A DNA stretch of 64,000 nt from Chelativorans multitrophicus (GTDB taxonomy: Bacteria > Pseudomonadota > Alphaproteobacteria > Rhizobiales > Rhizobiaceae): positions 1,674,001 to 1,738,000 of the forward strand of contig NZ_JAAAPL010000001.1 in assembly GCF_011317445.1 (NCBI RefSeq). The letters are read 5' to 3'. Below, one piece after another: positions 48,580 to 64,000 of the stretch (position 1 is its first letter; each line of letters opens with the position of its first letter). Below the pieces are notes generated by a model. It was not told where the DNA came from and did not search any database. It saw nothing but the letters and a program-made list of their open reading frames with translations. The translations under genes and the position numbers were made by a program.

Positions 48580-49799
48580 GCCGGCACCTCGGTCGGATCA
48601 TTGCCGTCAGTCGCGAGACCCGCGGCAGCTTGGCGAGCCAGGTCCGGCGAGTAGGACAGCGCGCAGAAGCGACTAAAACTTGCAAAGTCGCCCAGGAGAA
48701 AGGCATCTCCGCTGCCACGTTTGCCCCAGAAACTGGAACGGATATCCCCCCAGTTCTTGGGCAAATCACCCAATCGCCACTGTCCAGGAATACCGCCGAT
48801 CACAGCAGCATCTGAGGCATAAACTGACAGGTTTGGGTGTTCGAACGCAAGCTTCCGTGCGGGTTCCTCTTCAGCAAGAGTCTGGAATTGCAACGCAATG
48901 ACCGCTGCATTGGCATTCATTGCGAGCGCCTCGCCCAGCACTGCACAGATATGGGCATCTCGAAACGAAAATCCCGTCGTCAGAAGCACCGTGTCCGGGG
49001 TCAGCAGAAACCGCTTCAGTCTCTCGAACAGCGCCGCGTAAGGCTGCTTCTGAGTGAGATCGTACTTCAGATGGTCCGGGTATACGAGTTCGGTACAATC
49101 TGCACCTCCGCTCCTCACCACAGTTCCATTGTCACTTTTCCAGCCCAGTGATCCGTGCAGTTTCCAAACGCGCGACCAACGCGGGGGCAAATCGTTGCCT
49201 GCCACAGTGACCGGATCAAAAAAGGGTGCATGCCCCCCAGAAAAGCCGTCGAAATACGGTGCTTTTGCCTGCTCGAAGGCGGATTCAATCAATAGGTCGT
49301 AGTTTGTCGTGAATATTTCTACGGGATGAGCTCGCTGCGTACCGCTCACCCAAGAGACCAGTTCGTGATATGGAGTTCGACCTTCGGGTAGCTTGGCGCC
49401 GACGATCTCTCCGATAGCTGCGCAAATCGACTTCCCCAACCCAGCATAGCCTGCACCATCCAGCCCGTGCATTGGCGTGTCCCCCAGCGCTGTCTGAAGG
49501 AGACGAATCTTGGACAATATGGTCTCGATGTTGCCGCCATCCGGCAGCGAGTTGCGGATTGCAGCCGCTGCGGTTGCTTCCGTTCCAGTAAGGTGAACCA
49601 ACGCCCGGTCTGTCAGAACATTTACACCCGGGATCAGCGGCTGACCTGTGGGGTCAAGTTTGCCGTGTGCATCTACTCTTACGGATAGGGGGCCACCCGC
49701 GCCGATTAGAACACCAATGCGTTTGCGACCTTGCGACAAGATCTGGCGAAGATCCGCCATAAAACGATCTGGATTATGCACCGTATCTAATGCGCTCAT
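48576..49799 (-). CDS. SIR2-domain protein, probable NADase effector
   Basis: A 407-aa protein. The Rossmann NAD-binding elements are GVLIGAGGPLSV (about 28-39), EIFTTNYDLLIESAF (about 163-177) and WKLHGSLGW (about 215), with TTGFSFRDAHICAVLGEAL near residue 280; the LHGS histidine and NYD residues match active SIR2 enzymes. In the homologous defence pairs this subunit depletes NAD+ on infection. GGAGG precedes the ATG. It leads the SIR2-herA-KTSC unit and starts 72 bp downstream of the AddA-like gene on the same strand. Confidence 0.88.
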   Translation of the reverse strand: MSALDTVHNPDRFMADLRQILSQGRKRIGVLIGAGGPLSVRVDAHGKLDPTGQPLIPGVNVLTDRALVHLTGTEATAAAAIRNSLPDGGNIETILSKIRLLQTALGDTPMHGLDGAGYAGLGKSICAAIGEIVGAKLPEGRTPYHELVSWVSGTQRAHPVEIFTTNYDLLIESAFEQAKAPYFDGFSGGHAPFFDPVTVAGNDLPPRWSRVWKLHGSLGWKSDNGTVVRSGGADCTELVYPDHLKYDLTQKQPYAALFERLKRFLLTPDTVLLTTGFSFRDAHICAVLGEALAMNANAAVIALQFQTLAEEEPARKLAFEHPNLSVYASDAAVIGGIPGQWRLGDLPKNWGDIRSSFWGKRGSGDAFLLGDFASFSRFCALSYSPDLARQAAAGLATDGNDPTEVPA

Positions 49800-49871: not shown

Positions 49872-52800
49872 TTACAACGCGGAACTTCGAGTGGGCAGAA
49901 CTGGTATGACCACTCCGGGTGTCATCAGCACAATCAAGCCGCGCTCTGCCCTGGTCATATCGAGATAGGCCCTAACCTGCGCGCGATAATGATCGAGTGT
50001 CTCCGCCTCCGCCGTCACATCGCTTTTCCAGTCCACGACGACGGCGGGGCGTCCCTCGGCCGTCAGGGTCAGGGCATCAGCGATCCCGGCCGTTGCGATT
50101 TCCACGCCGTCGGACATCTGTGCGGCGTAGACAGGAAATTCGGCAACAAGTTCCAGCCGCAAGGCTTTGATTTCAGGCAAAGCGAGAGTTCGGGTCACGC
50201 AGGCCGCCAATTCCAGCGCCGACAGTCCTATCGCCGCGTCGGCAGCCGGAGCCTTGCCGAGGGCACGGATAAGCTCGCCAGCTCGTTTGGTCAGGGCGGC
50301 TTCCGCTTCTTGGACTTCACCTGTCAGCACCTCTTCCATGAGCTTGTGGAGGATCAGCCCGCGCTCGCGGCCGCCCTGTACGAGGGCAGCGGTTTCCAGC
50401 ACAGGACCGGGGTCATCGGACGATCCCGTCCAGAGGGAGGTTTCTTCTTCTCGCAGTACGGTCCCGGCGGCATTTTCGTCACGGCTGGGCGCAAGCCAGG
50501 TCAACCGCGCCTGCGCGGCTTCGATGGCTTCGGCTTCCTCGGCAAAGCTCACGCGTGTCTGGGTGTTGTCTGCGCTCGCACCGGCGGCTGCGAGATCGGC
50601 AGGCAGGTGAGATACGTCCAGACCTGGCAGGTCGGCCAGCGACAGGTCGACGAGACCGATCCAGGCCGATTTCGAGGGTGCGACATCGAGCCGAGGCAAA
50701 ACGAGGAGTTCACGGGCGCGGGTGGCTGCGACATACCAAAGCCGGATACGTTCGCGATCCAGCTCATCCTTCTCTGCTTGGCGCGCTGTTTCGTAGCCCT
50801 CGGGCGTAACGCCCAGGACTGGGCAATAGAAGGTCTCGGTCTGACGTTCGATGATGGCGTTGTCGGGCGCCATGACGCCGGTCATGGTGTTGATCGGAAT
50901 GACGATAGGCCATTCCAGCCCCTTGGCCGCGTACATGGTGAAGAGCGCTACCGCCTCCTCCTGCGCGTCGGGTCGTCCCTCAACTGCGCGGGCCTCGTCG
51001 GACCACGCCGCTGTCATAGCCTCGGAGAAGGCGCGCAGGCCGCGCACGGCGTAGCCAGTCGACAGACTGAGATAGAGATCGACATTGGCGAGCGCGCGCT
51101 CGGCCTGACCGCGATGGCGCTCGAGGAGAAGCGGACGGACGCGCAACACGTCTACGGCCTGCGAGAGCAGCTCGTGCGGGGTCGTGCTGTTGCCACGCCG
51201 GGAGAGCGATTGCAGCCGCTCGATGACATCGCGCGCGAGCGGATGCATGATGACAGCAGGGTCGATGCTGAGGTCCAGGCGCGGAATCCGATCCGGTTGT
51301 TCCTCCGAGCGGGGAAGTCCCCAGATGATGTCCAGCAGATTTTCTTCGGTGAGGCCAACCAGCGGCCCGCGCAGCAGCGCGCCGAGCGCCAGCGTGTCGC
51401 GGCGGTCAGCCAGAACGCGGGTCAGCGCGATCAGATCCTGCACCTCCTGGCGGCGGAACAGCCCCTTGCCGGCCTGGGTCGCGACAGGGATGCCGCGGCG
51501 TTCCAGGGTTTCCTCATAGCGCCACAGCTCCGCGCCCGTTGGCGCCAGCAAGGCGATGTCACCCGGCTGGCAGGGGCGCTCTGCGCCGCTGCGACAGTCG
51601 ATGATGGTGTGACTTTCGATGAGCCGGGCGCACAGCTCGGCGATGGCGTCGGCTTCGGCGTCGCGCTGCTGTTCGGCGCTGGCCTTGCCGTTTTCGTCGG
51701 CCACGGCGATGTCGAGAGCCGCCACGCACAGGCCGCCCCGATCGTCATGGAACGGGTCGAGAGCGGTGAAGCCCGGCTGGCCATCGGCCGAGAGAACGGC
51801 CTCAAATCGCTCATTGACGAATGTGAGGATTGAGGCGCTGGAGCGGAAATTGGTTGAGATCGACAAGAGACTGTCGGCGTCCTGGGCGTGGAAGGCATCA
51901 CGTGCCTGCACATAGGCGCCGACATCGGCGCCCCGGAAACGATAGATCGCCTGCTTGGGGTCGCCGACAAGGAAGAGCGCGCCCGGCCGGATTTGGAACC
52001 GCGTCCAGTCGTCATCGTCATCGACCGGCTCACCACACAGCCGCCAGAAGATTTCTGTTTGCAGGGGATCGGTGTCCTGAAACTCGTCGACGAGGACATG
52101 TGCGAAACGGTGTCCCAGAGCTTGGCGCACGGCGTCATGGTCGCGGAGCAAGTCGCGAGCGGCAAAAATCAGATCGTCGAAGTCGAGCTGGGCGCTGGCG
52201 CGTTTGTGGTCGCGGTAGCGTTGCAGGATCGGACGCGCTTCGTCGATCAGCGCGGCCAGGGCATGACCGGCGACGGCCTGCGCCAATGAGACCCAAGCGT
52301 CGCAACAAGAGATGTAGTGTGTTTCGGCGGCGTCGTTCAGCCGGTCGCCATCGGCCTTGGAGAAGCCAGCCTGCTTGGCCGTAGCGGCCCATTTGCCCTT
52401 CTTGCGGTAGGACGCGAAAGTGCCGGTCTTGGTGCAAAGGTCCGGGTGTGGTCGCGCGGTCAGGAGCCTAACAAGGCCGGCAGGCGTCGCAGGATTAGGG
52501 CCGTTCGCCACGTCGGCCGCCATTTCGGTCAGCCGCTCGACGATTGTCACCGTTTCCGGCTCGGCCGCAGCCACGCTTTCCATGAAGCTCGCGAAATCCG
52601 CTGTGGCTTGCCGAAATGCCGTGAGCCGGTCGTCAAGTGAAGAGACCGGCGGCGCCGTGAGTGTGGGGCGCCGGCGCATATTTTCGGCGATCTTGTGGAT
52701 GAGCGCCACGGTCTCACCGGGGCTGTGCAGCACCATCTCGGCCAGGACACCGCCTTGACCGCCCGACAGGCGTTCGCGCAGCCAACCATCGACGATCTCA

Positions 52801-53264
52801 AGGAAGGTGAGATCAGCCTGGTTACGATCCATGACGCCTGCGCCAGGATCGATGTCTGCCTCCGCCGGATAGGGCTTGATCAGGCGCTGGCAGAAGCCGT
52901 GGATGGTTGAGCAGGTGATTTCGTCGATCGCTGCGCTAGCGGCGGCGAGATTGTCGCGATGAGCCTGGGACAACCCATCAGGCAATGCCACGCGCAGCTC
53001 GGTCGCAATCGTGCCGACCGAGAGATCGGCGACGAACTCGCGGACACGCGATAGAAGCTCACTCGCGGCGAGTTCGGTGAAGGTAACGGCGGCGATGGAG
53101 CGCGGCGCGATGCCTTCGGCCAGCATGGCAGCGATGCGGCCAGCCATGACGGCGGTCTTGCCTGAGCCCGCGCCAGCCTCGACCAGGATCGAGCGTTCAT
53201 GGAGGCTGATCGCGGCGCGGCGCGCACCGTCGTCTTGCAGTACCTTGGACCCGCTGTTCATCAT
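49872..53264 (-). CDS. AddA-like UvrD-family helicase-nuclease
   Basis: A 1130-aa SF1A helicase with a C-terminal nuclease. Motif Ia/I: ILVEAGAGSGKTAVMAGRI (about 25-43). Motif II: VLVDEFQDTDPLQTEIFW (about 385). Motifs V/VI: LFTMYAAKGLEWPIVIPIN and LWYVAATRARELLVLPRL. The C-terminal RecB-type nuclease has the IADALTL and VVVDWKSDV to HYRAQVRAYLD elements (about 1060-1110). It overlaps the AddB-like gene by 4 bp (ATGATGA) with GGGAGG upstream. A resident extra AddAB-like pair on mobile DNA beside defence genes points to phage or plasmid DNA degradation, though recombination functions are possible. Confidence 0.88.
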   Translation of the reverse strand: MMNSGSKVLQDDGARRAAISLHERSILVEAGAGSGKTAVMAGRIAAMLAEGIAPRSIAAVTFTELAASELLSRVREFVADLSVGTIATELRVALPDGLSQAHRDNLAAASAAIDEITCSTIHGFCQRLIKPYPAEADIDPGAGVMDRNQADLTFLEIVDGWLRERLSGGQGGVLAEMVLHSPGETVALIHKIAENMRRRPTLTAPPVSSLDDRLTAFRQATADFASFMESVAAAEPETVTIVERLTEMAADVANGPNPATPAGLVRLLTARPHPDLCTKTGTFASYRKKGKWAATAKQAGFSKADGDRLNDAAETHYISCCDAWVSLAQAVAGHALAALIDEARPILQRYRDHKRASAQLDFDDLIFAARDLLRDHDAVRQALGHRFAHVLVDEFQDTDPLQTEIFWRLCGEPVDDDDDWTRFQIRPGALFLVGDPKQAIYRFRGADVGAYVQARDAFHAQDADSLLSISTNFRSSASILTFVNERFEAVLSADGQPGFTALDPFHDDRGGLCVAALDIAVADENGKASAEQQRDAEADAIAELCARLIESHTIIDCRSGAERPCQPGDIALLAPTGAELWRYEETLERRGIPVATQAGKGLFRRQEVQDLIALTRVLADRRDTLALGALLRGPLVGLTEENLLDIIWGLPRSEEQPDRIPRLDLSIDPAVIMHPLARDVIERLQSLSRRGNSTTPHELLSQAVDVLRVRPLLLERHRGQAERALANVDLYLSLSTGYAVRGLRAFSEAMTAAWSDEARAVEGRPDAQEEAVALFTMYAAKGLEWPIVIPINTMTGVMAPDNAIIERQTETFYCPVLGVTPEGYETARQAEKDELDRERIRLWYVAATRARELLVLPRLDVAPSKSAWIGLVDLSLADLPGLDVSHLPADLAAAGASADNTQTRVSFAEEAEAIEAAQARLTWLAPSRDENAAGTVLREEETSLWTGSSDDPGPVLETAALVQGGRERGLILHKLMEEVLTGEVQEAEAALTKRAGELIRALGKAPAADAAIGLSALELAACVTRTLALPEIKALRLELVAEFPVYAAQMSDGVEIATAGIADALTLTAEGRPAVVVDWKSDVTAEAETLDHYRAQVRAYLDMTRAERGLIVLMTPGVVIPVLPTRSSAL

Positions 53265-55915
53265 TCCGCCTCCCAGACCTGAGCGACTTCGCCAAGCCGC
53301 TCCGTGGCGGCAGGCATTTTCCGTTTGCAATAGGTGGCGCTGGCATTGGCCGGCAGGGCGAAGGCGAGATCGTCATAGTCGCCGCCGGTATCCGGGCCAG
53401 GCAGGGCCGCGCCTCCGGCGAGACTCGACCGTGCCGCGCGCAGATAGCCTGTGATCTCCGCCAGCACGGCCTCGGGATCGTCGAGCTGAAGATCAACGGG
53501 CTCGCGCGGGTAGAGCAGCGAGGCGCTGATGGCGACATCGTCGCCGAGAAGCGCCTTCACCGCGAAGGCGTAAAGACAGCGCTGAAGCTCGCGTCCACCG
53601 TTCAGACGTATCTCGCCGCGCGGCGGCCGTCCGGTCTTATAGTCCCGTACGAGGGTGCGCTTACCATCGCCCGAGATGTCGAGCCGGTCGATATAGCCCG
53701 CAATGTTGAAGCCCGTTTCGGGGATAGCGACCGGAGCATTAGCATCCCAGGGCGTCTCTGCCTCAGATTTCGGCTCGGAGCCGCCGAAGGGCACCTCTCC
53801 GTAGGAGCGTGTGCCCGGATGGACGTCATCACCGTAAGCCAAGGCGCGGCCCGCCAGCACGCGAGCGTCTTCGAGCGTACGGCTCCAGATGACAGCTGGT
53901 GGAACAGGGCGCTCGCTTTCCCAATCGGTGGCGACGGATTGTGCAGCCCGCGCGATTGCGGCTTCGATAGTCGCGGCGTCGGCGGAGGCGAGCCCCTCTC
54001 CGGTCTCGAGGTCGCGCAAGGCGCGGTCGAGAACCAAGTGAACGAGATCGCCGGTCCCGAGCGCGTCGAGCACAAGCGGTTCGGCGCTGCTCTGCGGTTC
54101 ACGCCATCCGAACGCATAGACCCACACGAAACTCAACGGATTGCGCAACAGACGGCGCAGCGAACTGGCCGACTGGGTACGGCCGAGGATGGCGAGAATG
54201 AGCGGATGATCCGCCCGCACGAGCCCGTCATGGGGAGTGATCTCAGCCTGCCGCCAGTCACGCCAACAGCCCAGCGCACCTACTGCTTGCGGATCGGCAG
54301 CGAACTCCTGGGGCCGGGCCATGAGGCGGTCGGTCTCGCTGAAGGCGTGCGCCGGCGTCGCGTTGCGGCGCAGATAGGTTTCGTCGCCGCGCCCGGCAAG
54401 CAAAGGGCTGCGACCGAGCAGACGCCCGTCGCTGTCACGTCGGGCCCGCGACAGGACAACGGTATCGGCTGTCGTCGCGAGGATCGTATCGAAGTCGCGG
54501 CGGTCGGCGAGGTTGACTGGCAAAGGGTCGAGCACAGGGGTCGGGATAATATGGTGCGGGATCAACCGATCCTCGGCTATTCCGCGCGGCCAGCGAGAGG
54601 AATTCAACCCGAGGAGCCGAACGAAGCGGCGGGGCGATGCCGCGAGCGCGCTGGCCGGCATCCAGGCGATAGAGACGCACGCCTCCAGTTCGTCGTCCTG
54701 CTTCAGGGTTTCCAATATCGTATCGATCGAGGCAGCAGGACCGGCGAGCAGCGCCTTGCGCCAGATCGTGAGGGCGCGGCCCTTGAGGAAGGCTTCTCCG
54801 ATCTCGCTGGCGGCTTCCGATCCTTTCACAAGGGTCTCGACTGCCATGCATAGCGCCGCAACGTGGTCGGCGCCGTCGGGCCAATCCTCCGGCGTCAGCC
54901 TGGCCAGCAGGCGATTCCATGCCTCCGGGGTCGAAAGCGGCGCATCGGTCGGCAGCACCCGCAGCCAGCCTTCGGGCAGGGCCTCGAAAGGCCCGCTGTC
55001 CCGGCAGAGCGCTGCGAGGCGGCGTAGCCGCGACTGCGACAGGCCGCGGATCACAATGTCGGCCAGCGCCGCAGCAGCCTGGCCCTCGCGGGTAGTGACA
55101 GTGCGGATACCATGGACGAAGTGCAGGTCTATATTGGCATCGGTGCGCAAGGCCAGGAAATGATCGTCATAGTCTGCGGGCGAAGCGGTCGCGATGGCGA
55201 TCTCCGAAGCCGGTACACCCGAAGAGAGTAGTCTTCGAGCCCAGCGCATGGCTTCAATAGCCTCGTGATAGGACGTCGCCGCGCTCACGGAGCTGATTCC
55301 CGGCGTCTGCTCCGGTGCGCGCGCGATCGTGACGCCAGTGCCCTCTAGCCATGATGGCACGCTTCTTGGGCCGGCCGTCCATTGCACGGGGATATGAGCT
55401 GTGAGGGCCTGGAGCAACGGCCGCCAGCAGAGCGAGAGTTCGGTAAGCCCAACGATTTCAATCGAACCGAAGACCGTCTGCGCATGAGCGATACGGGCGT
55501 TTGCGGCCGTGACGATGTCTAGCGGTCGCATCATGCCAGGCGGAAGCTGCTCGAGAACGGCAGCTTCCAAGCGCGCGAAAGCGGCGAGACGTGGATGGTC
55601 GGCCCCGCGGGTGGCAAGATTGATGCCCGCACGCCATGCTTTGTGAAGCGTACCGACCGCCGCGTCGATCATGCCCGGGAGAGCCTTGATTTCCTCTAGC
55701 TCCCCCATCGGGGTAGCGGGCAGGGCTGTTTGGATGGCCGCACGCAGGCTGTCGTCATCAATGGGGCGCGCAAAGCCGCCCGCCAGCCGAACCGCGGCCT
55801 GTTCGAAAGACATAATCTGAAGACCGTGCCGGCCGCTGCGGGCCGCCGCCAGGCGACTCTCACGCATGGCAAGGCGGCCATGAACGACCAGAGTGGATCG
55901 ATGCGAAAGGGTCAT
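53261..55915 (-). CDS. AddB-like PD-(D/E)XK nuclease partner
   Basis: An 884-aa protein. The middle part (FVRLLGLNSSRWPRGIAEDRLIPHHII) resembles the inactivated helicase region of AddB. The C-terminal PD-(D/E)XK nuclease reads FNIAGYIDRLDISGDGKRTLVRDYKTGRPPRG (Asp, then D-Y-K-T-G), followed by RELQRCLYAFAVKALLG. Iron-sulfur cysteines typical of AddB are not evident. Start at 55915 with a long GGAGGAGGAGGA site. The N-terminal Walker A of classical AddB is not visible, and the protein is shorter than chromosomal AddB (about 1000 aa). It is first in the leftward operon and starts about 200 bp from the divergent WYL regulator. Confidence 0.78.
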   Translation of the reverse strand: MTLSHRSTLVVHGRLAMRESRLAAARSGRHGLQIMSFEQAAVRLAGGFARPIDDDSLRAAIQTALPATPMGELEEIKALPGMIDAAVGTLHKAWRAGINLATRGADHPRLAAFARLEAAVLEQLPPGMMRPLDIVTAANARIAHAQTVFGSIEIVGLTELSLCWRPLLQALTAHIPVQWTAGPRSVPSWLEGTGVTIARAPEQTPGISSVSAATSYHEAIEAMRWARRLLSSGVPASEIAIATASPADYDDHFLALRTDANIDLHFVHGIRTVTTREGQAAAALADIVIRGLSQSRLRRLAALCRDSGPFEALPEGWLRVLPTDAPLSTPEAWNRLLARLTPEDWPDGADHVAALCMAVETLVKGSEAASEIGEAFLKGRALTIWRKALLAGPAASIDTILETLKQDDELEACVSIAWMPASALAASPRRFVRLLGLNSSRWPRGIAEDRLIPHHIIPTPVLDPLPVNLADRRDFDTILATTADTVVLSRARRDSDGRLLGRSPLLAGRGDETYLRRNATPAHAFSETDRLMARPQEFAADPQAVGALGCWRDWRQAEITPHDGLVRADHPLILAILGRTQSASSLRRLLRNPLSFVWVYAFGWREPQSSAEPLVLDALGTGDLVHLVLDRALRDLETGEGLASADAATIEAAIARAAQSVATDWESERPVPPAVIWSRTLEDARVLAGRALAYGDDVHPGTRSYGEVPFGGSEPKSEAETPWDANAPVAIPETGFNIAGYIDRLDISGDGKRTLVRDYKTGRPPRGEIRLNGGRELQRCLYAFAVKALLGDDVAISASLLYPREPVDLQLDDPEAVLAEITGYLRAARSSLAGGAALPGPDTGGDYDDLAFALPANASATYCKRKMPAATERLGEVAQVWEAE

Positions 55916-56028
55916 AAACGTCCTCCTCCTCCCGGACTCAGTCTTTGGGCTGAGAGTCATGCCGACGCTCTGGCGTTCACGCCATTGCCGCAGCATGTTC
56001 TGCCTCCCGTCTCGAATCTGATCGCCCA

Positions 56029-56087
56029 TTGACGACAGACCGCAATGAGCATAGTAAATACACGGACTATTTTGGATTGTCCATATA
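56029..56087 (+). promoter_or_regulatory. Divergent control region: promoter and inverted-repeat operator
   Basis: For the rightward operon: -35 TTGACG (56029-56034), 17-bp spacer, -10 TAGTAA (56052-56057). Directly downstream lies an imperfect inverted repeat, GGACTAT-TTTGG-ATTGTCC (56064-56082), extending outward to 56059-56087 with 9 of 12 matches per arm. A repressor bound there would sit at the transcription start. WYL regulators of the BrxR/CapW type bind inverted repeats in their own promoters, so the next gene is the likely regulator. Confidence 0.6.
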
Positions 56088-56119
56088 GTTTTGATTCTGA
56101 CTGATGCGAGGCGAACACG

Positions 56120-57004
56120 ATGGCGGAAGCCGCGACGGTGCTGAAGTGGGGGGTGGAGCGCCGACTCGAATTCATCGAGTTCCGACTGTTCTGGGAGGGC
56201 TCTATAAACCGCGCCGCCCTCGTTGAGACGTTTGGGGTGTCGGTGCCGCAGGCGTCCAAGGATTTGGCGCTGTATCAGGAGCGCGCTCCGGGCAACATGG
56301 AATATGACACGCGTGCCAAGCGCTATGTCGCCGCGGAACGGTTTGTCCTGCGTTTCCTTGAACCTGACCCTTACATCTACCTCTCGCAGCTTCGTTCGAT
56401 CGCCGAAGGTTCTGTGCCGGCAAGCGATTCGTGGATTTCGGTTTTTCCTGGTGCTGATGTCGCGATGACACCTCGACGGGACATAGACATAGCTGTTCTG
56501 CGTAAGATTCTCGACGCCACCCGCGAAGGCGTCTCTATCGACATTTTCTATCAGTCCATGAATAAGGCTCGGCCAGACCCAATCTGGCGTCGCATCACAC
56601 CCCACGCATTCGGCTATGATGGTTTCCGCTGGCACGCCCGAGCCTATTGTCATCTAGAGCATAAGTTCAAAGATTTCCTGCTGCCACGCGTTCTGGATGC
56701 TGGTGCCAAGAGTGAACCGGGAGAACTCGGTGAGCGGGACTGGCTCTGGAACAATTATTTTGATGTGATTATCGGTCCGCATCCCGCTCTGACGGCCAGT
56801 CAGAAGCAGGTTGTCGCTAAAGATTACGGATTAGATCACGGCAACGACGTGCTCACGGTTCGTTATGCGATGCTCTTCTATGTATTGAAACGCCTTGGTT
56901 TGCTTGGTGATGCTGCAAAGCAAAGTCCGTACACTCAGCATATCGTGACAATAAATCGCAAGGAAACTGAAGACGCGCTTGAACGAGCGGAGCTTCAGCT
57001 ATGA
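56120..57004 (+). CDS. BrxR/CapW-like WYL-domain transcriptional regulator
   Basis: A 294-aa protein. The N-terminal winged HTH (RLEFIEFRLFWEGSINRAALVETFGVSVPQASKDLALYQERAPGNMEYDTRAKRYVA, residues about 15-70) is typical of the BrxR/CapW family. The WYL-like domain (about 130-205) reads GVSIDIFYQSMN to RRITPHAFGYDGFRWHARAYCHLEHKFKDFLLPRV, and a C-terminal extension follows. Family members repress defence operons and may sense nucleotide or nucleic-acid ligands. It is the first gene of the rightward operon and 16 bp from the helicase gene. Confidence 0.88.
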   Translation: MAEAATVLKWGVERRLEFIEFRLFWEGSINRAALVETFGVSVPQASKDLALYQERAPGNMEYDTRAKRYVAAERFVLRFLEPDPYIYLSQLRSIAEGSVPASDSWISVFPGADVAMTPRRDIDIAVLRKILDATREGVSIDIFYQSMNKARPDPIWRRITPHAFGYDGFRWHARAYCHLEHKFKDFLLPRVLDAGAKSEPGELGERDWLWNNYFDVIIGPHPALTASQKQVVAKDYGLDHGNDVLTVRYAMLFYVLKRLGLLGDAAKQSPYTQHIVTINRKETEDALERAELQL

Positions 57005-57020
57005 GTGCCCGGGGAGATGA

Positions 57021-60000
57021 ATGATGTCCGCGAAGCTTGAGGAGATTAAGAACGGCGCGTCTGTTCGAGGCGTGGCTTCGGCGCAGGCTGTGCATGTTGT
57101 TTCCGTCGACTGGATCGGGGACCAGGCGATCAGTGTCGTTTTTCGTGATCACAACGGTGCGGTGGCAGAGGCCATTTTGTACCGAGACGACGAGCATCGC
57201 CTTGAAGTTGAACAAAACGGACGGGCTTGGTCGTTCGATGCCGATGGCGCGTTGCTGCGCTTGGTGACGGAGGCCAATCGCATCAAGTTGGCGCATTTTT
57301 TCGACCCGTATCTGGCCATCCACACGAGCCTTGTCGATCCGCTGCCGCACCAGATTTCGGCGGTCTATGGCGAGATGCTGTCGCGCCAGCCGCTGCGCTT
57401 CCTCCTTGCCGATGATCCCGGCGCCGGCAAGACCATTATGGCTGGGTTGCTGATGAAGGAACTGATCGCCCGCAGCGATCTGGAACGCTGCCTCGTCGTT
57501 GCGCCGGGCAGCCTGGTTGAGCAGTGGCAGGACGAACTCGGCCAGAAGTTCAATCTCGAATTCGACATCCTCTCCCGCGACATGATCGAGAACTCGCGGT
57601 CGGGAAATCCGTTTAGTGATCGGGATCGGCTGATCGTCCGTCTCGACGTGTTGGCGCGCAATGAGGAGCTTCAGGAGAAGCTCATGAATGCGCGCGAATG
57701 GGACCTGATCATCTGCGACGAAGCCCATCGCATGTCAGCCACCTATTTCGGCGGGGAGGTCAAATATACGCGGCGCTATCAGGTCGGCCAGAAGCTCGGC
57801 CAGGTTTGCCGCCATCTGCTATTGATGTCGGCGACGCCGCACAACGGCAAGGAAGAGGATTTCCAGCTCTTCATGGCGCTCCTCGATGGTGATCGGTTCG
57901 AGGGCCGGTTCCGCGACGGTGTCCATTATGCCGATACCGAAGACATGATGCGCAGGCTGACCAAGGAGGAACTGCTCAAGTTCGATGGTCGGCCGCTGTT
58001 TCCCGAGCGACGGGCGCGTACGGTCAAGTATCAGCTGTCGGAAGGGGAAGCTGCGCTCTACACCGCCGTCACCGAATATGTGCGCACCGAGATGAACCGT
58101 GTGCAGCGTTTTGCCGAGGGCGACGGGAAGAAGCGCAACAATGTCGGTTTCGCTTTGCAGATCCTTCAGCGGCGTCTCGCCTCGTCGCCAGCGGCCATCT
58201 ACCAATCCCTCAAGCGCCGCCGGGAACGGCTGGAAAACGAGTTGGGCGAAGCCCGATTGGCCTCCAAGGGTCGCAGGGCCGGCGCAACCGAACCCGCGAT
58301 CAACGCCGACATGCTGCGGAACATCGAGGAGTATGGTCAGGAGGAGATCGACGAGCTTGAGGATCTGATCTCGACAGGCGCGACGACGGCTGAGACAGTC
58401 GAGCAGCTTGCCCTGGAGGTCGAGACCCTGAAGGGTCTGGAGACGATGGCGCTCGGCGTGCTGCGCTCGGGCGTGGACACGAAATGGAGCCAGCTCAACC
58501 GGATCCTCGACGACGATTTGATGATCGACGCGGCCGGCAATCGCCGCAAGCTGATCATCTTCACCGAGCCCAAGGACACGCTGCACTACCTGCTTGACAA
58601 GGTGCGGGCGCGGCTCGGCAACCCGGAGGCCGTCGAGGTGATCCACGGCGGCGTGTCGCGCGAAGAGCGGCGAAAGGTCGTCGAGCGCTTCATGCAGGAC
58701 AAGGACATGCTGGTCCTGATCGCCAACGACGCGGCAGGCGAAGGCGTGAACCTCCAGCGCGGCCATCTCATGGTCAATTACGACCTGCCGTGGAACCCGA
58801 ACAAGATCGAGCAGCGGTTCGGCCGCATCCACCGCATCGGCCAGATGGAGGTCTGCCACCTCTGGAATCTCGTCGCGGCCGATACGCGCGAAGGCGAGGT
58901 TTACGCGCGGCTGCTGGAGAAACTGGAAGCTGCGCGCGAGGCGCTGGGCGGCCGTGTCTATGACGTGCTCGGCGAATTGTTCGACGGCGTGGCGCTGAAG
59001 GATCTGTTGTTCGAGGCGATCCAGTATGGCGAGCAAGAGGACGTGAAAGCGCGTCTTTTCCAGCAGGTCGATGGTGCGGTCGATCAGGCGCACTTGCTCG
59101 AGCTGCTGCGCCGCCGCGCCCTGACCAACGACACCATGCCGGAAGCGAGGGTCGAGGAATTGCGGCTGGAAATGGAGCGCGCCGAGGCGCTGCGCCTACA
59201 GCCCCATCACATCCAGAGCTTCTTCGTCGAAGCGTTCCAGCATCTGGGTGGCAAGATCAAACGCCGGGAGGAAGGGCGTTGGGAGGTTACGCATGTCCCG
59301 GTGCGGATCCGCGAACGGGATCGCCAGATCGGGACCGGCGCGCCGCTCCAGACACAGTATGAGCGCATTTGCTTCGAGAAGGACAAGATTAACCAGCAGC
59401 CGGTCGCCGCCTTCGTTTGTCCCGGCCATCCGCTGCTCGAAGCCGTGATCAGCATGATCCGCGAACAGTATGAGCAGATCATGCGGCAGGGCGCGATCCT
59501 GGTCGATGACACAGATGCGGGTGATGCGCTGTCGGCGATTTTCCTGCTGGAACATGTTGTCCAGGACGGTCGCGTCACCAGTGCAGGCAAGCCGCATGTG
59601 ATCTCGCAGCGGCTCCAGTTCGCTGCGATCGACAAGGCGGGAAACACCATCAACGCCGGCATCGCGCCGCATTTGAATCTGCGGCCGGCCACGCCGGAAG
59701 AGGTCGCCAGCGTGCGGGACCTTCTGGACGAGAGTTGGCTGACCACTGATCTGGAGAAGGCCGCGATCCGGTTTGCGACAGTCGAACTGGCCCAAGGCCA
59801 TGTCGCCGAGGTCAAGGCGCGGCGTCTGCCCGAGATCGAAAAGGTTGAGCAGGAGGTACGCGCACGCCTCAAGAAGGAGATCAATTACTGGGACTCGCGC
59901 GCCTTCGAGCTGAAGGAGGAGGAGCGCGCCGGTAAGAAGACGCGGGTGAACTGGCAGAACGCGCAGCGCCGCGCCGAAGACCTGGCGGATCGGCAAAAGC

Positions 60001-60527
60001 GACGCATGGACCAACTTGAGCGGGAGCGTTTCATCTCGTCGCAGCCCCCGCGTGTGCGGGGTGGCATGGTCGTCATCCCCCGGGGGTTGCTGCAAGAGCG
60101 CCAAGCGCCGAGCATTCCAAACCATTTTGCAGAAGACCCGGCCGCGCGCCGCGAGATCGAGCTTGCGGCGATGGCCGCTGTCATGGCGGCCGAGCGCGCG
60201 CTGGGCAACGAGCCGGCAGACGTCTCCGCCCAGAAGATTGGCTACGACATCGCGTCCCACGATCCTAGGTCGGGGCATCTACGCTTCATCGAGGTCAAGG
60301 GGCGAATCGACGGCGCGGACCGCGTGATGGTCACGCGCCAGGAGGTCATTACTTCGCTACACGAGCCGGAGAAGTTCATTCTGGCGATCGTCTCCGTCAA
60401 CGCAGGCTTCGCTCACGCGCCGCGCTATGTGCGCGGCCCGCTCGTGGAACGGGAACCGTCGTTCCTTGAGACTGCGATCCAGTTTGACCTCCGACGCCTG
60501 CTGGAGCGGGCGCAAGAGCCGGCATAG
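57021..60527 (+). CDS. SNF2-family helicase with C-terminal DUF3883
   Basis: An 1168-aa ATP-dependent translocase. Motif I: LLADDPGAGKTIMAGLLMKEL (about 130). Motif II: LIICDEAHRMSA (about 232). Motif III: LLMSATPHNGKEEDF. Motif VI: QRFGRIHRIGQMEVCHLW (about 610). The C-terminal DUF3883 domain (about 1065-1130) has IGYDIASHDPRSGHLRFIEVKGR, with the E-x-K of a nuclease-like fold. GGGGAG precedes tandem ATGs. Similar SNF2-DUF3883 proteins occur as DrmD in class 1 DISARM and as orphans; no other DISARM gene is visible here. Confidence 0.85.
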   Translation: MMSAKLEEIKNGASVRGVASAQAVHVVSVDWIGDQAISVVFRDHNGAVAEAILYRDDEHRLEVEQNGRAWSFDADGALLRLVTEANRIKLAHFFDPYLAIHTSLVDPLPHQISAVYGEMLSRQPLRFLLADDPGAGKTIMAGLLMKELIARSDLERCLVVAPGSLVEQWQDELGQKFNLEFDILSRDMIENSRSGNPFSDRDRLIVRLDVLARNEELQEKLMNAREWDLIICDEAHRMSATYFGGEVKYTRRYQVGQKLGQVCRHLLLMSATPHNGKEEDFQLFMALLDGDRFEGRFRDGVHYADTEDMMRRLTKEELLKFDGRPLFPERRARTVKYQLSEGEAALYTAVTEYVRTEMNRVQRFAEGDGKKRNNVGFALQILQRRLASSPAAIYQSLKRRRERLENELGEARLASKGRRAGATEPAINADMLRNIEEYGQEEIDELEDLISTGATTAETVEQLALEVETLKGLETMALGVLRSGVDTKWSQLNRILDDDLMIDAAGNRRKLIIFTEPKDTLHYLLDKVRARLGNPEAVEVIHGGVSREERRKVVERFMQDKDMLVLIANDAAGEGVNLQRGHLMVNYDLPWNPNKIEQRFGRIHRIGQMEVCHLWNLVAADTREGEVYARLLEKLEAAREALGGRVYDVLGELFDGVALKDLLFEAIQYGEQEDVKARLFQQVDGAVDQAHLLELLRRRALTNDTMPEARVEELRLEMERAEALRLQPHHIQSFFVEAFQHLGGKIKRREEGRWEVTHVPVRIRERDRQIGTGAPLQTQYERICFEKDKINQQPVAAFVCPGHPLLEAVISMIREQYEQIMRQGAILVDDTDAGDALSAIFLLEHVVQDGRVTSAGKPHVISQRLQFAAIDKAGNTINAGIAPHLNLRPATPEEVASVRDLLDESWLTTDLEKAAIRFATVELAQGHVAEVKARRLPEIEKVEQEVRARLKKEINYWDSRAFELKEEERAGKKTRVNWQNAQRRAEDLADRQKRRMDQLERERFISSQPPRVRGGMVVIPRGLLQERQAPSIPNHFAEDPAARREIELAAMAAVMAAERALGNEPADVSAQKIGYDIASHDPRSGHLRFIEVKGRIDGADRVMVTRQEVITSLHEPEKFILAIVSVNAGFAHAPRYVRGPLVEREPSFLETAIQFDLRRLLERAQEPA

Positions 60528-60535
60528 GAGGTGAC

Positions 60536-61027
60536 ATGACCGGCATCGCGGATTTTTCCATCCTGGCCCCCGTGCCGCTAGAGCACCTTCAATCGGGGCG
60601 CGCTATCGCCGACGCCACGGGTTTCGTCGCCTTCGGGTCGCGCAAATGGGAGCTGTTTCGCAAGGTTGATGAACTGCGAGGCGGCGCGCGGGTGCCAGTC
60701 CTGATCTATCCGTCACATGAGGATGTGCCTGCCAAGCTGAGCTTCGTCGTGTCTTGGCTGGGATGGTATGCTGGCTGCGAGGAAAGCGGTAACGGCAAGC
60801 ATTCAAAGGGAATGGTGCATCGGCCGCCGACGACAGGCCAATATGCCGCCGACAATCAGGGCCACTGGGCGGTGTTCTGGCATGTTTGCGATCTGCACGA
60901 GCTGCCCGCCGGGCAGCGGCTGCCGATCTCCGCGATCCAGATCATCAAGGGCGGCTGGCGCAAGACGGCGCCGCCGCGGGGACCGGAATTGGTCGCTACG
61001 CCGTCGACGGTGGAGCTTTCGCTATGA
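60536..61027 (+). CDS. 163-aa protein of unknown function in the defence operon
   Basis: A soluble protein with aromatic-rich segments: FVAFGSRKWELFRKVDELRGGARVPVLIYPSH, WLGWYAGCEESGNGKHSKGMVHRPPTTGQYAADNQGHWAVFWHVCDLHELP. The mixed beta pattern and Trp/His residues could fit a PUA/EVE-like reader of modified bases, but this is speculation. A perfect AGGAGG site precedes the ATG. It overlaps the next gene by 4 bp, so the two are translationally coupled. Confidence 0.75.
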   Translation: MTGIADFSILAPVPLEHLQSGRAIADATGFVAFGSRKWELFRKVDELRGGARVPVLIYPSHEDVPAKLSFVVSWLGWYAGCEESGNGKHSKGMVHRPPTTGQYAADNQGHWAVFWHVCDLHELPAGQRLPISAIQIIKGGWRKTAPPRGPELVATPSTVELSL

Positions 61028-64000
61028 GCGTGAGCCACCAGATCGAAACCGTTGCTGCCAATCCACCCGACTATTTCCGGTCGATCCAGGAGCGTGCGAC
61101 CAAGCGCTGGGATCAGCTTGAGGCAGACCCGGAGCTGGCTGGCCCTTGGCACCAGCTCTTCAAGCAGGTCCAGAGCCCGCGGCACATCCTGTCCGAGTTG
61201 CTCCAGAACGCCGACGACGCCGGCGCCAGCGAAGCGCGGGTGTCAATCGAGGACGACCGCTTTGTGTTCGAGCACAATGGCGAGGACTTCATCGAGGCCC
61301 ATTTCGCCTCGATTTGCCGCTTTGGCTATTCCAACAAGCGCGCCCTGCACACGATCGGCTTCCGAGGGATCGGATTCAAGAGCACGTTCAGCCTGGGCGA
61401 TCGAGTTGAACTGTTTACGCCGACGCTGGCGGTGGCCTTCGAGCGCGTGCGGTTCACCCAGCCGCATTGGCTCGACAACCGTCATCCGACAACGGGAACC
61501 ACGCGCGTCGAAGTGGCGATCGCCAACCCGCTGCTGCGCCGAGAAGTCGAGAAGAACCTCGACGAGTGGCTGAAGAGCCCCGTGTCGTTGCTGTTCTTCA
61601 AGAAGATCCGTCGCCTTCAGATCGGCGATAGTGAGGTGCATTGGCAGAGTCTCGGACCCGGCCCCATCGCGGAGAGCGAATGGATGGCCTTGGATCAGAA
61701 AGCCGAAGATCCCTTGCTCCTCGTGCGTTCGGGCGAGGAATCTTTTCCGTCGGAAGCGCTCGACGAGATCCGCCAGGAGCGGATGCTGGGGGCCGAGGAT
61801 GATGGTGATTTCCCGCCCTGCCGGGTGGAGATCGTGCTGGGCGCGAAGGGCCGCCTCTATGTCGTGCTGCCGACCGGCGTCGAAACGGCGCTACCTTTTG
61901 CCTGCAATGCGCCCTTCATCCAGGATCCGGCACGTCTCAAGATCAAGGATCCGGAGACCTCGCCAACCAATCGCTGGCTCCTGAACCGCGCTGGCGAGTT
62001 AGCCGCCAGTGCCATGATGGAGTGGCTGGAGCAGACGAAGACCGGCCCGCAGCACCGGGCGGATGCCTATGGTCTGCTGCCGGACGTTGATCGGGAGGCC
62101 ACTACGCTCGAAGGGGCATGCGGCGCGATCGTCGAATTAGCGTTCGACGCCGCCGTAGAAGGCAAATCGATCCTCCTGACCGAGGAGGGGAGCCTGGTTG
62201 AGGCGAAGGCCGCGATCACCGTACCACGGCCGATCTTTGACATCTGGCCGGCTGACCAAGCGATGGCGCTGCTCGATACCAAGTCCCGGCCGGCGCTTTG
62301 CCAGCATGTCTCGGCCAAGAACCGGACCAAGCTCGTTCACTGGGGGCTGATCGAGGAGTTCTCGAAGTCGGACTTGCTTGAGCGTCTGCGCAGCAAGCAT
62401 CTGCCGAAACCTGCGACCTGGCGCCATCTTCTGAACCTGTGGACCTATATCGCGCCAGAGGTGACGGGCTGGCAGTGCCATGATGCCGACGCCCTGCGGA
62501 TCGTGCCCGTGCAGGGCAAGGAGGTGCTTTACGCGGCGTCGGAGATCGTCCGGCTCGGCGAAAAGAAGCTGCTACAATCGGAGAAGGATTGGGAGTTCCT
62601 CGCCAGCCATCTGATCGTCCTCAACCAGAACTGGACTCGATTCCTCGCCGATCAGCGCCGGGACAAGGCGGAAGGCGGAAGCCGCAACGATCCCGTCGAA
62701 GCGGCCTTCGCGGTGCTGGAGGAGATCGGTCTCGACGGGACGAGCGACGTCAACGCGGTGATCGAGCGGGTCGCCGCCGACTATTTCGGTTCCGGTCAGG
62801 CGAAACTCGTCGAGTGCGTCCAGCTTGCCCAGATCGCGGCCAAGCTTAGTGTCACGATCGGAGACTCTTTCCGATATGCCTGCGCTGACAGAACACTGCG
62901 GGCGATCAGTAATAGCGTGTTGTTCGACGAGAATGGCGCGCTGGAGGAGCTGCTGCCGGAGGCGGTCCGAAAGGCGCAACTTCTGCATGGTGACTATGTC
63001 GCGAGTTTCAAATCCTGCACGCGGGAGGATTGGCTGCGCTGGGTGTCGTCTGGCCGTTCGGGGCTTCAGACGATGGCGCCCCTGGTCCAGAAGCGGCAGA
63101 GCCTTTACGGGCGACAGCAGCTCACAGCGGAAGCGCAGGCGCGCGGCGCCAGCAGCGCTCTCTACTATCCCTATGTCACCAACCAGTTCGTCATTGAGGA
63201 CTGGGATTTCCCTGCGGACTATTGGCGGCATTGGGAGGGGCTGGCGAAGACGGACGCAGGAATCTGGACGAAGATCGTCGGCAAGATCCTGGATCAGCGC
63301 GACACTTATTGGTCGCGGGCCGTCAGCGCTCGGCTGTTGCAGGTAGCGACCACCGGGTCCACGCGATCGATTTCATCAGAGCGCCTACTGACCGACTGGT
63401 TGCTGAAGCTGCGGGCCAAGCCCTGCCTTCCCGATACCCGCAATATGGTCCAGCTTCCGGCGGATCTCGTGCGCAGGACGCCGGAAACGGAGGCGTTGAT
63501 CGATGTGGAGCCTTTCGTGCACGGGCTGCTCGATCGCGAAACCACCCGCCCGCTGCTCGACCTTCTTGGCGTCCGCAGCACGCCGAGCGGTCCCGGGCGT
63601 CTGCTCGACCGGCTGCGCGCCCTGGCCAAATCCGACAAGGCTCCGGCCCATGAGGTCGAGAAATGGTATCGCCGCCTCGATCAGATGCTCGACGGATGCT
63701 CGACTGCCGACGCACAGAACATCAGAACCGCCTTCAAGACGGAGAAGCTGATCCTCGCCCAGGACGGGACGTGGGTGACGTCCGGCGGTGTCTTCCTGGC
63801 AGGGGACGAGGAGGATGTTCCCGGCGCTGCGGTCGTGCGCGCGTCGGTGCTCGATCTCAGCCTGTGGCATCGTGTCGGTGTCGCCGATCGCCCATCGGCG
63901 GACCTGGCGCTGCAATGGCTCGGAACGCTGGCCTCGGGAAAGGGGCTGTCGGCCGACGACGCCCGGCGGGTTCGCACCCTGCTGATCCGTTACCCCACGC
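61024..64000 (+). CDS. Sacsin-like GHKL ATPase, continues past the window
   Basis: At least 992 residues, open at the window end. The N-terminal Hsp90/sacsin-type ATPase has the N box HILSELLQNADDAGASEARV (about 58-77) and the glycine box HTIGFRGIGFKSTFSLGDRV (about 109-128). LFFKKIRRLQIGDSEVHW and following beta-rich segments fit the sacsin repeat-like transducer region. The rest is helical and unassigned. GHKL proteins of this type occur in several bacterial defence loci, often with DUF3883 modules. Its ATG overlaps the previous stop (ATGA). Confidence 0.82.
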   Translation, partial: MSVSHQIETVAANPPDYFRSIQERATKRWDQLEADPELAGPWHQLFKQVQSPRHILSELLQNADDAGASEARVSIEDDRFVFEHNGEDFIEAHFASICRFGYSNKRALHTIGFRGIGFKSTFSLGDRVELFTPTLAVAFERVRFTQPHWLDNRHPTTGTTRVEVAIANPLLRREVEKNLDEWLKSPVSLLFFKKIRRLQIGDSEVHWQSLGPGPIAESEWMALDQKAEDPLLLVRSGEESFPSEALDEIRQERMLGAEDDGDFPPCRVEIVLGAKGRLYVVLPTGVETALPFACNAPFIQDPARLKIKDPETSPTNRWLLNRAGELAASAMMEWLEQTKTGPQHRADAYGLLPDVDREATTLEGACGAIVELAFDAAVEGKSILLTEEGSLVEAKAAITVPRPIFDIWPADQAMALLDTKSRPALCQHVSAKNRTKLVHWGLIEEFSKSDLLERLRSKHLPKPATWRHLLNLWTYIAPEVTGWQCHDADALRIVPVQGKEVLYAASEIVRLGEKKLLQSEKDWEFLASHLIVLNQNWTRFLADQRRDKAEGGSRNDPVEAAFAVLEEIGLDGTSDVNAVIERVAADYFGSGQAKLVECVQLAQIAAKLSVTIGDSFRYACADRTLRAISNSVLFDENGALEELLPEAVRKAQLLHGDYVASFKSCTREDWLRWVSSGRSGLQTMAPLVQKRQSLYGRQQLTAEAQARGASSALYYPYVTNQFVIEDWDFPADYWRHWEGLAKTDAGIWTKIVGKILDQRDTYWSRAVSARLLQVATTGSTRSISSERLLTDWLLKLRAKPCLPDTRNMVQLPADLVRRTPETEALIDVEPFVHGLLDRETTRPLLDLLGVRSTPSGPGRLLDRLRALAKSDKAPAHEVEKWYRRLDQMLDGCSTADAQNIRTAFKTEKLILAQDGTWVTSGGVFLAGDEEDVPGAAVVRASVLDLSLWHRVGVADRPSADLALQWLGTLASGKGLSADDARRVRTLLIRYPT

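What the first reader, a model, noticed from the sequence alone, without database searches (positions are those of the whole stretch)
49872..64000. Divergent BrxR-controlled island: AddAB-like nuclease facing SNF2-DUF3883, 163-aa protein and sacsin-like ATPase
Seen: two operons run apart from a 204-bp region that holds a promoter and an inverted repeat next to a WYL regulator of BrxR/CapW type. Leftward are AddB-like and AddA-like genes overlapping by 4 bp. Rightward are the regulator, an SNF2-DUF3883 translocase, a 163-aa protein and a GHKL ATPase, tightly spaced. Known: BrxR/CapW regulators guard BREX, CBASS and other defence operons; SNF2 translocases, AddAB-type nucleases and sacsin-like ATPases each occur in defence loci. 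Inference: a multi-gene antiphage system combining DNA translocation, degradation and a GHKL switch that I cannot match to DISARM, BREX, Gabija or other named systems.
Basis: partly seen in the sequence, partly recalled or inferred. Interest (0 to 1): 0.9.

Follow-up and report, generated by a model that had tools for sequence, protein, structure and literature searches.

The report
Portable AddAB-like nuclease joining defence systems
A mobile bacterial DNA element carries an extra DNA-shredding enzyme pair that, in many related bacteria, sits in the middle of interchangeable virus-defence gene sets, here between a SIR2-HerA set and an already named set called Hma; the defence sets are known, while the shared enzyme pair in the middle was not found described.

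Summary
The leftward operon is AddB-AddA-SIR2-HerA. The rightward one continues past 64 kb with HmaB (DUF1156 methylase) and HmaC (HEPN-DUF499 ATPase). The right half is therefore a known candidate system, Hma (Type-1 BREX-related), with two extra genes: a 163-aa orphan and a sacsin-like ATPase. SIR2-HerA is also a known kind. All lie on a conjugative element. What looks new is the AddAB-like pair: helicase and both nuclease motifs intact, 27% identical to the host's own AddA. In 80 related loci it is a constant unit with exchangeable neighbours: Hma, BREX, type III RM, Shango, Zorya, a multiubiquitin-E1 cassette, Zac, SIR2-HerA. AddB and AddA diverge together (rho 0.97), AddB and HmaA do not (0.29). 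An operator-like palindrome before the CapW/BrxR-type regulator is kept in 44 of 44 regions examined. Best explanation: a portable, co-regulated DNA-end-processing module that finishes off DNA opened by whichever cassette is installed. Co-occurrence, spacing, motifs and operator are shown; repression and cooperation are inferred.

The parts
46744..48579 (-). HerA-type ATPase (611 aa) of a SIR2-HerA pair
   Evidence: PADLOC HerA PDLC04105 530 bits; Walker A GSTGSGKS
48576..49799 (-). SIR2-like protein (407 aa), overlaps HerA by 4 bp, 72 bp behind AddA
   Evidence: PADLOC SIR2 PDLC04094 518 bits; Pfam SIR2_2
49872..53264 (-). AddA-like helicase-nuclease (1130 aa; the listed ORF extends to 53330)
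   Evidence: Pfam UvrD-helicase, PDDEXK_1; NCBIfam addA_alphas 286 bits, cut-off 860.75; PDB AddA 3u44_A E 3.6e-30; motifs
53261..55915 (-). AddB-like nuclease subunit (884 aa), ATGA overlap with AddA
   Evidence: Pfam PDDEXK_1; predicted fold, top Foldseek match AddAB subunit B 3u44_B E 3.9e-14; junction
56057..56089 (.). operator-like palindrome between the two divergent operons, about 30 bp before the WYL start
   Evidence: 44 of 44 WYL-linked intergenic regions examined (window included) vs mean 1.05 in shuffles
56120..57004 (+). WYL regulator of CapW/BrxR type (294 aa)
   Evidence: PDB CapW 7tb6 E 1.9e-60; Pfam WYL
57021..60527 (+). HmaA: SNF2-type helicase with C-terminal NOV_C/DUF3883 (1168 aa)
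   Evidence: PADLOC HmaA 1587 bits over residues 5-1167
60536..61027 (+). 163-aa orphan protein in the HmaA-HmaB slot
   Evidence: no Pfam, PADLOC or PDB match; homologues at 67-99% in 9 other Hma loci held, one of them partial
61024..64000 (+). sacsin/TmtA-like GHKL ATPase (1408 aa; continues past the window to L003:3251)
   Evidence: NCBIfam P_loop_sacsin 77 bits, cut-off 50; TmtA PDLC03968 193 bits; GHKL motifs
45222..46181 (-). ArdC-type anti-restriction protein, part of the conjugative-element backbone beside the island
   Evidence: Pfam ArdcN and MPTase-PolyVal

Best explanation
The locus is a composite defence island on an integrated conjugative element. A CapW/BrxR-type repressor sits on one palindrome between two divergent operons and keeps both low until infection. 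Rightward is an Hma (Type-1 BREX-related) set: HmaB marks self DNA; HmaC (HEPN-DUF499 ATPase) and HmaA (SNF2 translocase with a REase-like NOV_C end) attack unmarked DNA, with a sacsin-like ATPase and a 163-aa protein as accessory parts. Leftward is a mobile AddAB-like helicase-nuclease that degrades DNA from ends, in one operon with a SIR2-HerA pair as an NAD-depleting last resort. The AddAB pair is the constant element: a portable DNA-end-processing module that works with whatever defence cassette is installed beside it, and a spare for the host's own AddAB that phage inhibitors may not block. Shown: gene content, intact catalytic motifs, purifying selection, operon-like spacing, conserved operator-like site, exchange of flanking cassettes around a constant AddB-AddA. 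Inferred: repression and induction, functional cooperation, resistance to inhibitors, NAD depletion by SIR2.
For: Named families. Upstream cassettes of AddB in 65 loci with at least 5 kb: Hma 20, multiubiquitin-E1 9, BREX 8, type III RM 5, Shango 3, other WYL-linked 9, none assigned 11. PADLOC on six of those 9 names BREX (L081), Zorya (L089), a DrmD-like helicase (L102) and HmaC (L097). AddA follows AddB in 77 of 80 loci; in the other three the contig ends within 16 bases of AddB. Constant unit: AddB-AddA identity rho 0.97 in 2628 pairs, AddB-HmaA 0.29, AddB-ZacB 0.17. L045 and L050 share 6018 bp at 93.7% over AddB-AddA while both flanks differ (apart from 185 bp at 74% in WYL); L085 (Shango) and L086 (BREX) share 95% from the 16th base of AddB on. 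Spacing: SngC stop to AddB 2 nt in 5 of 5; AddA stop to the DEAD helicase 13-14 nt in 19 of 19, to ZacA 4 nt in 8 of 23. Operator-like site in 44 of 44 regions examined, with WYL proteins as low as 47% identical to the window's. AddA Walker A lysine, DEFQD and DWK in 68 of 68, AddB DYK in 77 of 77. dN/dS 0.08-0.19 in 12 comparisons. 64 plasmid records carry AddB, 40 typed conjugative. Precedent: RecBCD as shared DNA-processing hub of two defence systems, PMC13192584 (passages).
Against: No experiment. Loci are related by descent and transfer, so counts are not independent. Only the best 80 of 160 relatives were kept. Of 56 loci with both flanks long enough, 15 had no assigned cassette on either side. 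Hma occurs without AddAB (5 of 9 class-sample loci), and so does Zac (2 of 4 in a phylum sample, a third with only a 27% AddA-like match), so AddAB is not required. The 29 non-WYL loci tested lack a good operator. SIR2-HerA follows AddA in only 3 of 63 relatives. HmaA and HmaB do not diverge together (rho 0.07, 28 pairs of 8 loci), so the Hma cassette itself is a mosaic. Several dS values exceed 1, where the estimate is poor.
Confidence: 0.55

Rival explanations
1. AddAB is mainly a recombination anchor or passenger: its long conserved sequence lets mobile elements swap flanking defence cassettes by homologous recombination, without AddAB acting in defence.
For: Shared DNA blocks end near the AddB start and the AddA end; AddAB stays constant while flanks change.
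Against: Catalytic motifs fully kept, dN/dS about 0.1, 2-14 nt spacing to genes of different systems and the conserved operator-like site point to selected function. Both may be true at once.
Confidence: 0.2
2. The whole locus is one fixed multi-gene system in which AddAB, SNF2, the 163-aa protein and the sacsin-like ATPase form one machine.
For: 20 of 65 relatives pair AddAB with Hma; WYL and HmaA diverge together, rho 0.81; HmaA beside AddAB is 86-98% identical to the window's in 19 loci, while HmaA of five Hma loci without AddAB is 34-74%.
Against: AddAB sits with at least six other systems; the sacsin-like and 163-aa genes are missing from several AddAB-Hma loci, some with GmrSD-type or unknown genes instead; Hma occurs without AddAB.
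Confidence: 0.1
3. AddAB serves the mobile element rather than immunity: repair of its own DNA or establishment after transfer, with defence genes as separate cargo.
For: 52 of 64 plasmid records are typed conjugative or mobilizable; the window is a conjugative element; the host keeps its own AddA.
Against: 45 of 65 relatives have an assigned defence cassette directly upstream or divergent, and five of six annotated plasmid regions show one beside the pair; the sixth (L042, 40% identity) has only an AbiE pair next to it.
Confidence: 0.15

Closest known systems
Hma / Type-1 BREX-related (DUF499) system
   Same: HmaA, HmaB, HmaC by nearly full-length profile matches on one strand; HEPN fused to DUF499; DUF1156 methylase with DPPYY motif
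   Different: CapW/BrxR-type regulator, AddAB across the promoter region, and two extra genes between HmaA and HmaB; five Hma loci without AddAB gave no hit over 80 bits to these
AddAB / RecBCD / AdnAB helicase-nucleases
   Same: a Walker-A helicase with a nuclease end plus a second nuclease subunit, translationally coupled; AddB model closest to AddAB subunit B
   Different: 27% identical to the host's own AddA; far below the NCBIfam AddA cut-off; mobile and embedded among defence genes
SIR2-HerA defence pair
   Same: SIR2 gene overlapping a HerA gene; PADLOC profiles over 500 bits each
   Different: below NCBIfam equivalog cut-offs; placed 72 bp behind AddA
[quoted passage not shown]
   Same: one end-processing enzyme serving more than one defence system
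   Different: there the housekeeping enzyme; here a dedicated mobile one inside the island
BrxR/CapW-controlled defence islands (PMC9122601, PMC9122588, passages)
   Same: WYL regulator, palindromic site, mosaic defence content
   Different: the first paper's text has no word AddA or UvrD; here one operator pattern recurs across different cassettes that face the same AddAB pair

Membership tests
Hma / Type-1 BR system | HmaA, HmaB and HmaC encoded together | tested here: met
   1587, 1253 and 948 bits, same strand, consecutive but for two inserted genes
Hma / Type-1 BR system | DUF1156 and amino-methyltransferase motif in the methylase | tested here: met
   Pfam DUF1156; SSDPPYYDN; that DPPY marks amino-methylases is recalled
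Hma / Type-1 BR system | N-terminal TUDOR domain in the helicase | not tested
   reported for the family in PMC12839542 (passages); not examined here
Hma / Type-1 BR system | phage protection | not testable with these tools
   needs an experiment
AddAB family | AddA: UvrD-type helicase plus PD-(D/E)XK end | tested here: met
AddAB family | AddB-like fold with nuclease end in the second subunit | tested here: met
   Foldseek top match 3u44_B E 3.9e-14, prob 1.00, but TM 0.23 because the domains are badly placed in a model of mean pLDDT 65.7; nuclease part 554-856 fits AdnA 6ppu_A with Z 15.2, rmsd 4.2 over 241 residues; DYK in 77 of 77; no PDB match by sequence
AddAB family | reaches the NCBIfam equivalog cut-off for housekeeping AddA | tested here: not met
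   286 of 860.75 bits; so not the housekeeping orthologue
SIR2-HerA | adjacent SIR2 and HerA genes | tested here: met
SIR2-HerA | NCBIfam equivalog cut-offs | tested here: not met
   SIR2 58 of 500 bits, HerA 242 of 850 bits
CapW/BrxR regulators | WYL protein homologous over its length to CapW and BrxR | tested here: met
CapW/BrxR regulators | binds a palindrome and represses | not testable with these tools
   site conserved, binding not shown
DISARM | drmA, drmB, drmC core | tested here: not met
   ten island proteins scanned; the SNF2 protein hits DrmD below cut-off (383.5 of 610) and is best matched by HmaA; none is best matched by DrmA, DrmB or DrmC
Gabija | GajA beside GajB | tested here: not met
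   AddA resembles GajB through the helicase only; no GajA among the ten proteins scanned

The most novel reading that the evidence does not exclude
A dedicated, mobile AddAB is a general-purpose effector hub for many unrelated defence systems, under a regulator-operator pair common to several of them; its single-stranded DNA products might also be the signal that releases the WYL repressor, making end-processing a self-amplifying infection alarm.
Probability: 0.3. Interest if true: 0.82.

Novelty: new variant of a known kind. Interest (0 to 1): 0.62.

Why it matters
Defence systems are usually catalogued one by one, and PADLOC-DB 2.0.0 gave no hit for this AddB at E 0.01. A helicase-nuclease pair that stays constant while BREX, Hma, type III RM, Shango, Zorya, Zac and ubiquitin-type cassettes change around it would mean that some systems share a removable effector. 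That makes the question of how different systems cooperate, and why RecBCD-type enzymes matter to several of them, testable in one genetic swap experiment.

Tried and rejected
Structure of the 163-aa protein: model pLDDT 33.6, unusable; no Pfam match at E 5 for it and three homologues, no PDB match with a profile of seven. A guess that it is EVE-like was mine and no call supports it. The idea that Zac always needs AddAB looked good in the class sample (ZacC in 5 of 289 genomes, all 5 among the 8 with AddB) but failed in a phylum sample: ZacC in 4 of 398; 1 with AddB (G238, its ZacC only 29% identical and on the other strand), 2 with none within the 20 kb read, 1 with only a 27% AddA-like match. 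BrxC profile PDLC02479 in the class sample: 1 of 289, a genome not in the AddB list. A first count of AddA-to-neighbour gaps read a wrong AddA stop in some loci; the recount is.

Literature. Searches showed no paper describing an AddAB pair inside such cassettes, but four of them listed only part of the papers found (20 of 67, 15 of 348, 10 of 143, 10 of 16). PMC12839542 has 0 mentions of UvrD, RecB or AddA in its main text, PMC9122601 none of AddA or UvrD. Papers were seen as search listings or passages, none in full; supplements were not read. The search for ZacA/B/C showed only unrelated papers, so Zac is named from PADLOC alone.

Limits of the counts. Cassette counts rest on tblastn thresholds that I chose and on one representative per cluster scanned with PADLOC and Pfam; cluster numbers such as c7 are mine. 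ZacA relatives under 35% identity were not counted as Zac, though in 8 loci one follows behind another gene. The full-length AddB loci of the order sample, besides the window, were fetched separately and are outside the 80-locus counts, though some are the same places.

Full report
What is there. The window is a stretch of a 4.8-Mb genome. TrbE-, TraG- and relaxase-type genes, a ParB-like gene and ArdC lie to the left and a serine recombinase to the right of the island, so the island is carried by an integrated conjugative element. The leftward operon reads AddB-AddA-SIR2-HerA; the rightward one WYL-HmaA-163 aa-sacsin-like ATPase-HmaB-HmaC. The finding stopped at 49872 and at the window's end and so missed SIR2-HerA, HmaB and HmaC.

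The right half is known. HmaA, HmaB and HmaC match PADLOC's Hma over nearly full length. Hma was proposed in PMC8565338 (passages) and re-described as Type-1 BREX-related, with HEPN-fused DUF499 in many members, in PMC12839542 (passages). The sequence has RNKLSH in the HEPN part, DPPYY in the methylase and EVK in NOV_C. DPPYY fits the amino-methylase assignment of PMC12839542 better than the m5C one of PMC8565338 (motif knowledge recalled). The HmaA-HmaB slot is variable: sacsin-like gene, 163-aa gene, GmrSD-type protein or unknowns.

The AddAB pair. AddA has helicase and nuclease domains and its best PDB match is the AddA subunit of AddAB. AddB has no meaningful PDB match by sequence, but its predicted fold is closest to AddAB subunit B (mean pLDDT 65.7, residues 392-563 poor, TM 0.23 for the whole chain). 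The host has its own AddA at 1476 bits, 27% identical. Catalytic residues are kept in 68 of 68 AddA and 77 of 77 AddB sequences; dN/dS is 0.08-0.19 in 12 comparisons, some with dS over 1. No PADLOC model hits AddB at E 0.01.

Distribution. In 297 genomes of the order, 12 match AddB at E 0.001: 8 at full length (the window, six at 85-89%, one at 67%; one of the six has a second copy at 42%) and 4 only weakly. In plasmids 64 of 72,556 records match, 40 typed conjugative and 12 mobilizable; in 50,697 phage records none. A scan of genome contigs of 84,980 species found 160 relatives, of which the best 80 were kept.

A constant core with changing neighbours. Among the 80 loci AddA was found in 77 (the other three end within 16 bases of AddB) and WYL in 46. 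Of 65 loci with at least 5 kb upstream: Hma 20, multiubiquitin-E1 9, BREX 8, type III RM with an HKD-SNF2 protein 5, Shango 3, other WYL-linked 9, none assigned 11. Of 63 with at least 3 kb downstream: a 1113-aa DEAD helicase 17, Zac 15, SIR2-HerA 3, Shango 3 (opposite strand), ubiquitin cassette 1, none assigned 24. The DEAD helicase is not a named system. Of 56 loci with both flanks, 41 have at least one assigned neighbour, 33 on both sides, 15 none. PADLOC on ten proteins from six of the nine other WYL-linked loci adds BREX (L081), Zorya (L089), a DrmD-like helicase (L102), HmaC (L097) and a weak LmuB hit (L121); L103 gave nothing, and L080, L114 and L122 were not scanned. Six annotated plasmid regions of the 64 were read: BREX with divergent WYL, multiubiquitin-E1, a Shango-like TerB/ATPase/helicase set, a type III-like set, and one with only AbiE beside it.

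Spacing. SngC stop to AddB is 2 nt in 5 of 5. AddA stop to the DEAD helicase is 13-14 nt in 19 of 19. AddA stop to ZacA is 4 nt in 8 of 23, 18 nt in 2, 60-159 nt in 5, and about 2.9-3.4 kb in 8, where another gene stands between; to SIR2 72, 168 and 256 nt.

Exchange. AddB and AddA diverge together (rho 0.97), as do WYL and HmaA (0.81). AddB with WYL is 0.45, with HmaA 0.29, ZacB 0.17, BrxC 0.54 (9 loci), DEAD helicase 0.53; HmaA with HmaB is only 0.07 (8 loci). Shared DNA blocks end near gene edges: L045 (type III RM / SIR2-HerA) and L050 (Hma / DEAD helicase) share 6018 bp over AddB-AddA; L085 (Shango) and L086 (BREX) share 9383 bp from the 16th base of AddB on; the window shares SIR2-HerA-AddAB with L022 and everything from AddA rightward to the window's end with L066.

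Regulation. The regions between WYL and AddB of 43 relatives (of 46 with a WYL hit; L057, L114 and L122 left out) and the window contain a palindrome of the form ACTATATGGAC-N11-GTCCGTGTAAT, 24-57 nt from the WYL start: 44 of 44 at 7 or fewer mismatches of 22, spacing 11 in 40; shuffles mean 1.05, largest 3. The motif was taken from the window, so it favours itself and close relatives, but WYL proteins down to 47% identity keep it. On the AddB side follows the run TAATTATTATTCCCAT, exact in 15 of 44, within two mismatches in 31, four in the window; I read it as part of the AddB promoter, by inference. Of 29 loci without WYL, two reach 7 mismatches in the last kilobase and 27 are worse. CapW sites overlap the -10 box (PMC9122588, passages) and BrxR binds inverted repeats (PMC9122601, passages). 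The WYL proteins PafBC and DriD bind single-stranded DNA (abstracts in the listing); whether this regulator does is unknown.

How specific is the link to Hma? In 289 genomes of the class HmaB occurs in 9 and AddB in 8; 4 have both, 3 of them side by side (window included), the fourth on separate contigs. The five Hma loci without AddAB gave no hit over 80 bits to WYL, the sacsin-like gene or the 163-aa gene, and their HmaA is 34-74% identical to the window's, against 86-98% in 19 loci beside AddAB. So AddAB goes with one Hma lineage, and with other systems too.

Mechanism. Defence cassettes that cut foreign DNA create ends; an AddAB-type enzyme degrades from ends. A dedicated, infection-controlled copy would finish DNA opened by Hma, BREX or RM and would stand in if phage proteins block the host's enzyme. 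That phages inhibit RecBCD and that systems monitor it is reviewed in PMC12904381 (passages); [quoted passage not shown] All cooperation in this locus is inference.

Verdict. Observation confirmed and extended; interpretation partly supported. Known: Hma, SIR2-HerA, CapW/BrxR-type regulation, mosaic islands. Apparently new: a conserved mobile AddAB-like pair as the fixed centre of exchangeable defence cassettes, not seen in the searches made.

Noticed in passing
L068:16062-19403 and 18 other loci: A 1113-aa DEAD/SWI2-SNF2-type helicase starts 13-14 nt after AddA in 19 of 19 loci measured; only weak PbeA/Cas3 matches. It may be a third subunit of the AddAB module.
   Followed up: partly
L052:16058 onward, L092, L083 and others: ZacABC follows AddA by 4 nt in 8 of 23 loci measured; Zac also exists without AddAB.
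   Followed up: partly
L082:3971-7372 and relatives; L037: A cassette of multiubiquitin, E1/DUF6791 and DUF6527 genes with an M78 peptidase-UvrD-PDDEXK fusion stands upstream of AddB on the same strand.
   Followed up: partly
L054:9735-9980, L067:9732-9989, L068:9726-9989: A small ORF of 81-87 aa lies between the operator and AddB in these loci.
   Followed up: no
window 60536 to L003:3251, and L043, L055, L069, L079, L099, L105: The slot between HmaA and HmaB holds different accessory genes in different loci (sacsin-like, 163 aa, GmrSD-type, unknown proteins of about 325 and 423 aa).
   Followed up: partly
L060:1144-8919: HmaA and the sacsin-like ATPase appear as one open frame of 2591 aa, a fusion or a sequencing artefact.
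   Followed up: no
window 7039-46181: Conjugative-element genes: TrbE-like ATPase, TraG-like coupling protein, relaxase with DUF3363, strawberry-notch-type helicase beside a Toprim protein, ParB-like protein, ArdC.
   Followed up: partly
L003:10058 onward: A serine recombinase follows HmaC and then the sequence is masked.
   Followed up: no
L040:36755-42652: On a Sulfitobacter plasmid a SIR2-ATPase pair and a WYL gene next to SbcCD lie about 11-12 kb from the AddAB-Shango operon.
   Followed up: no
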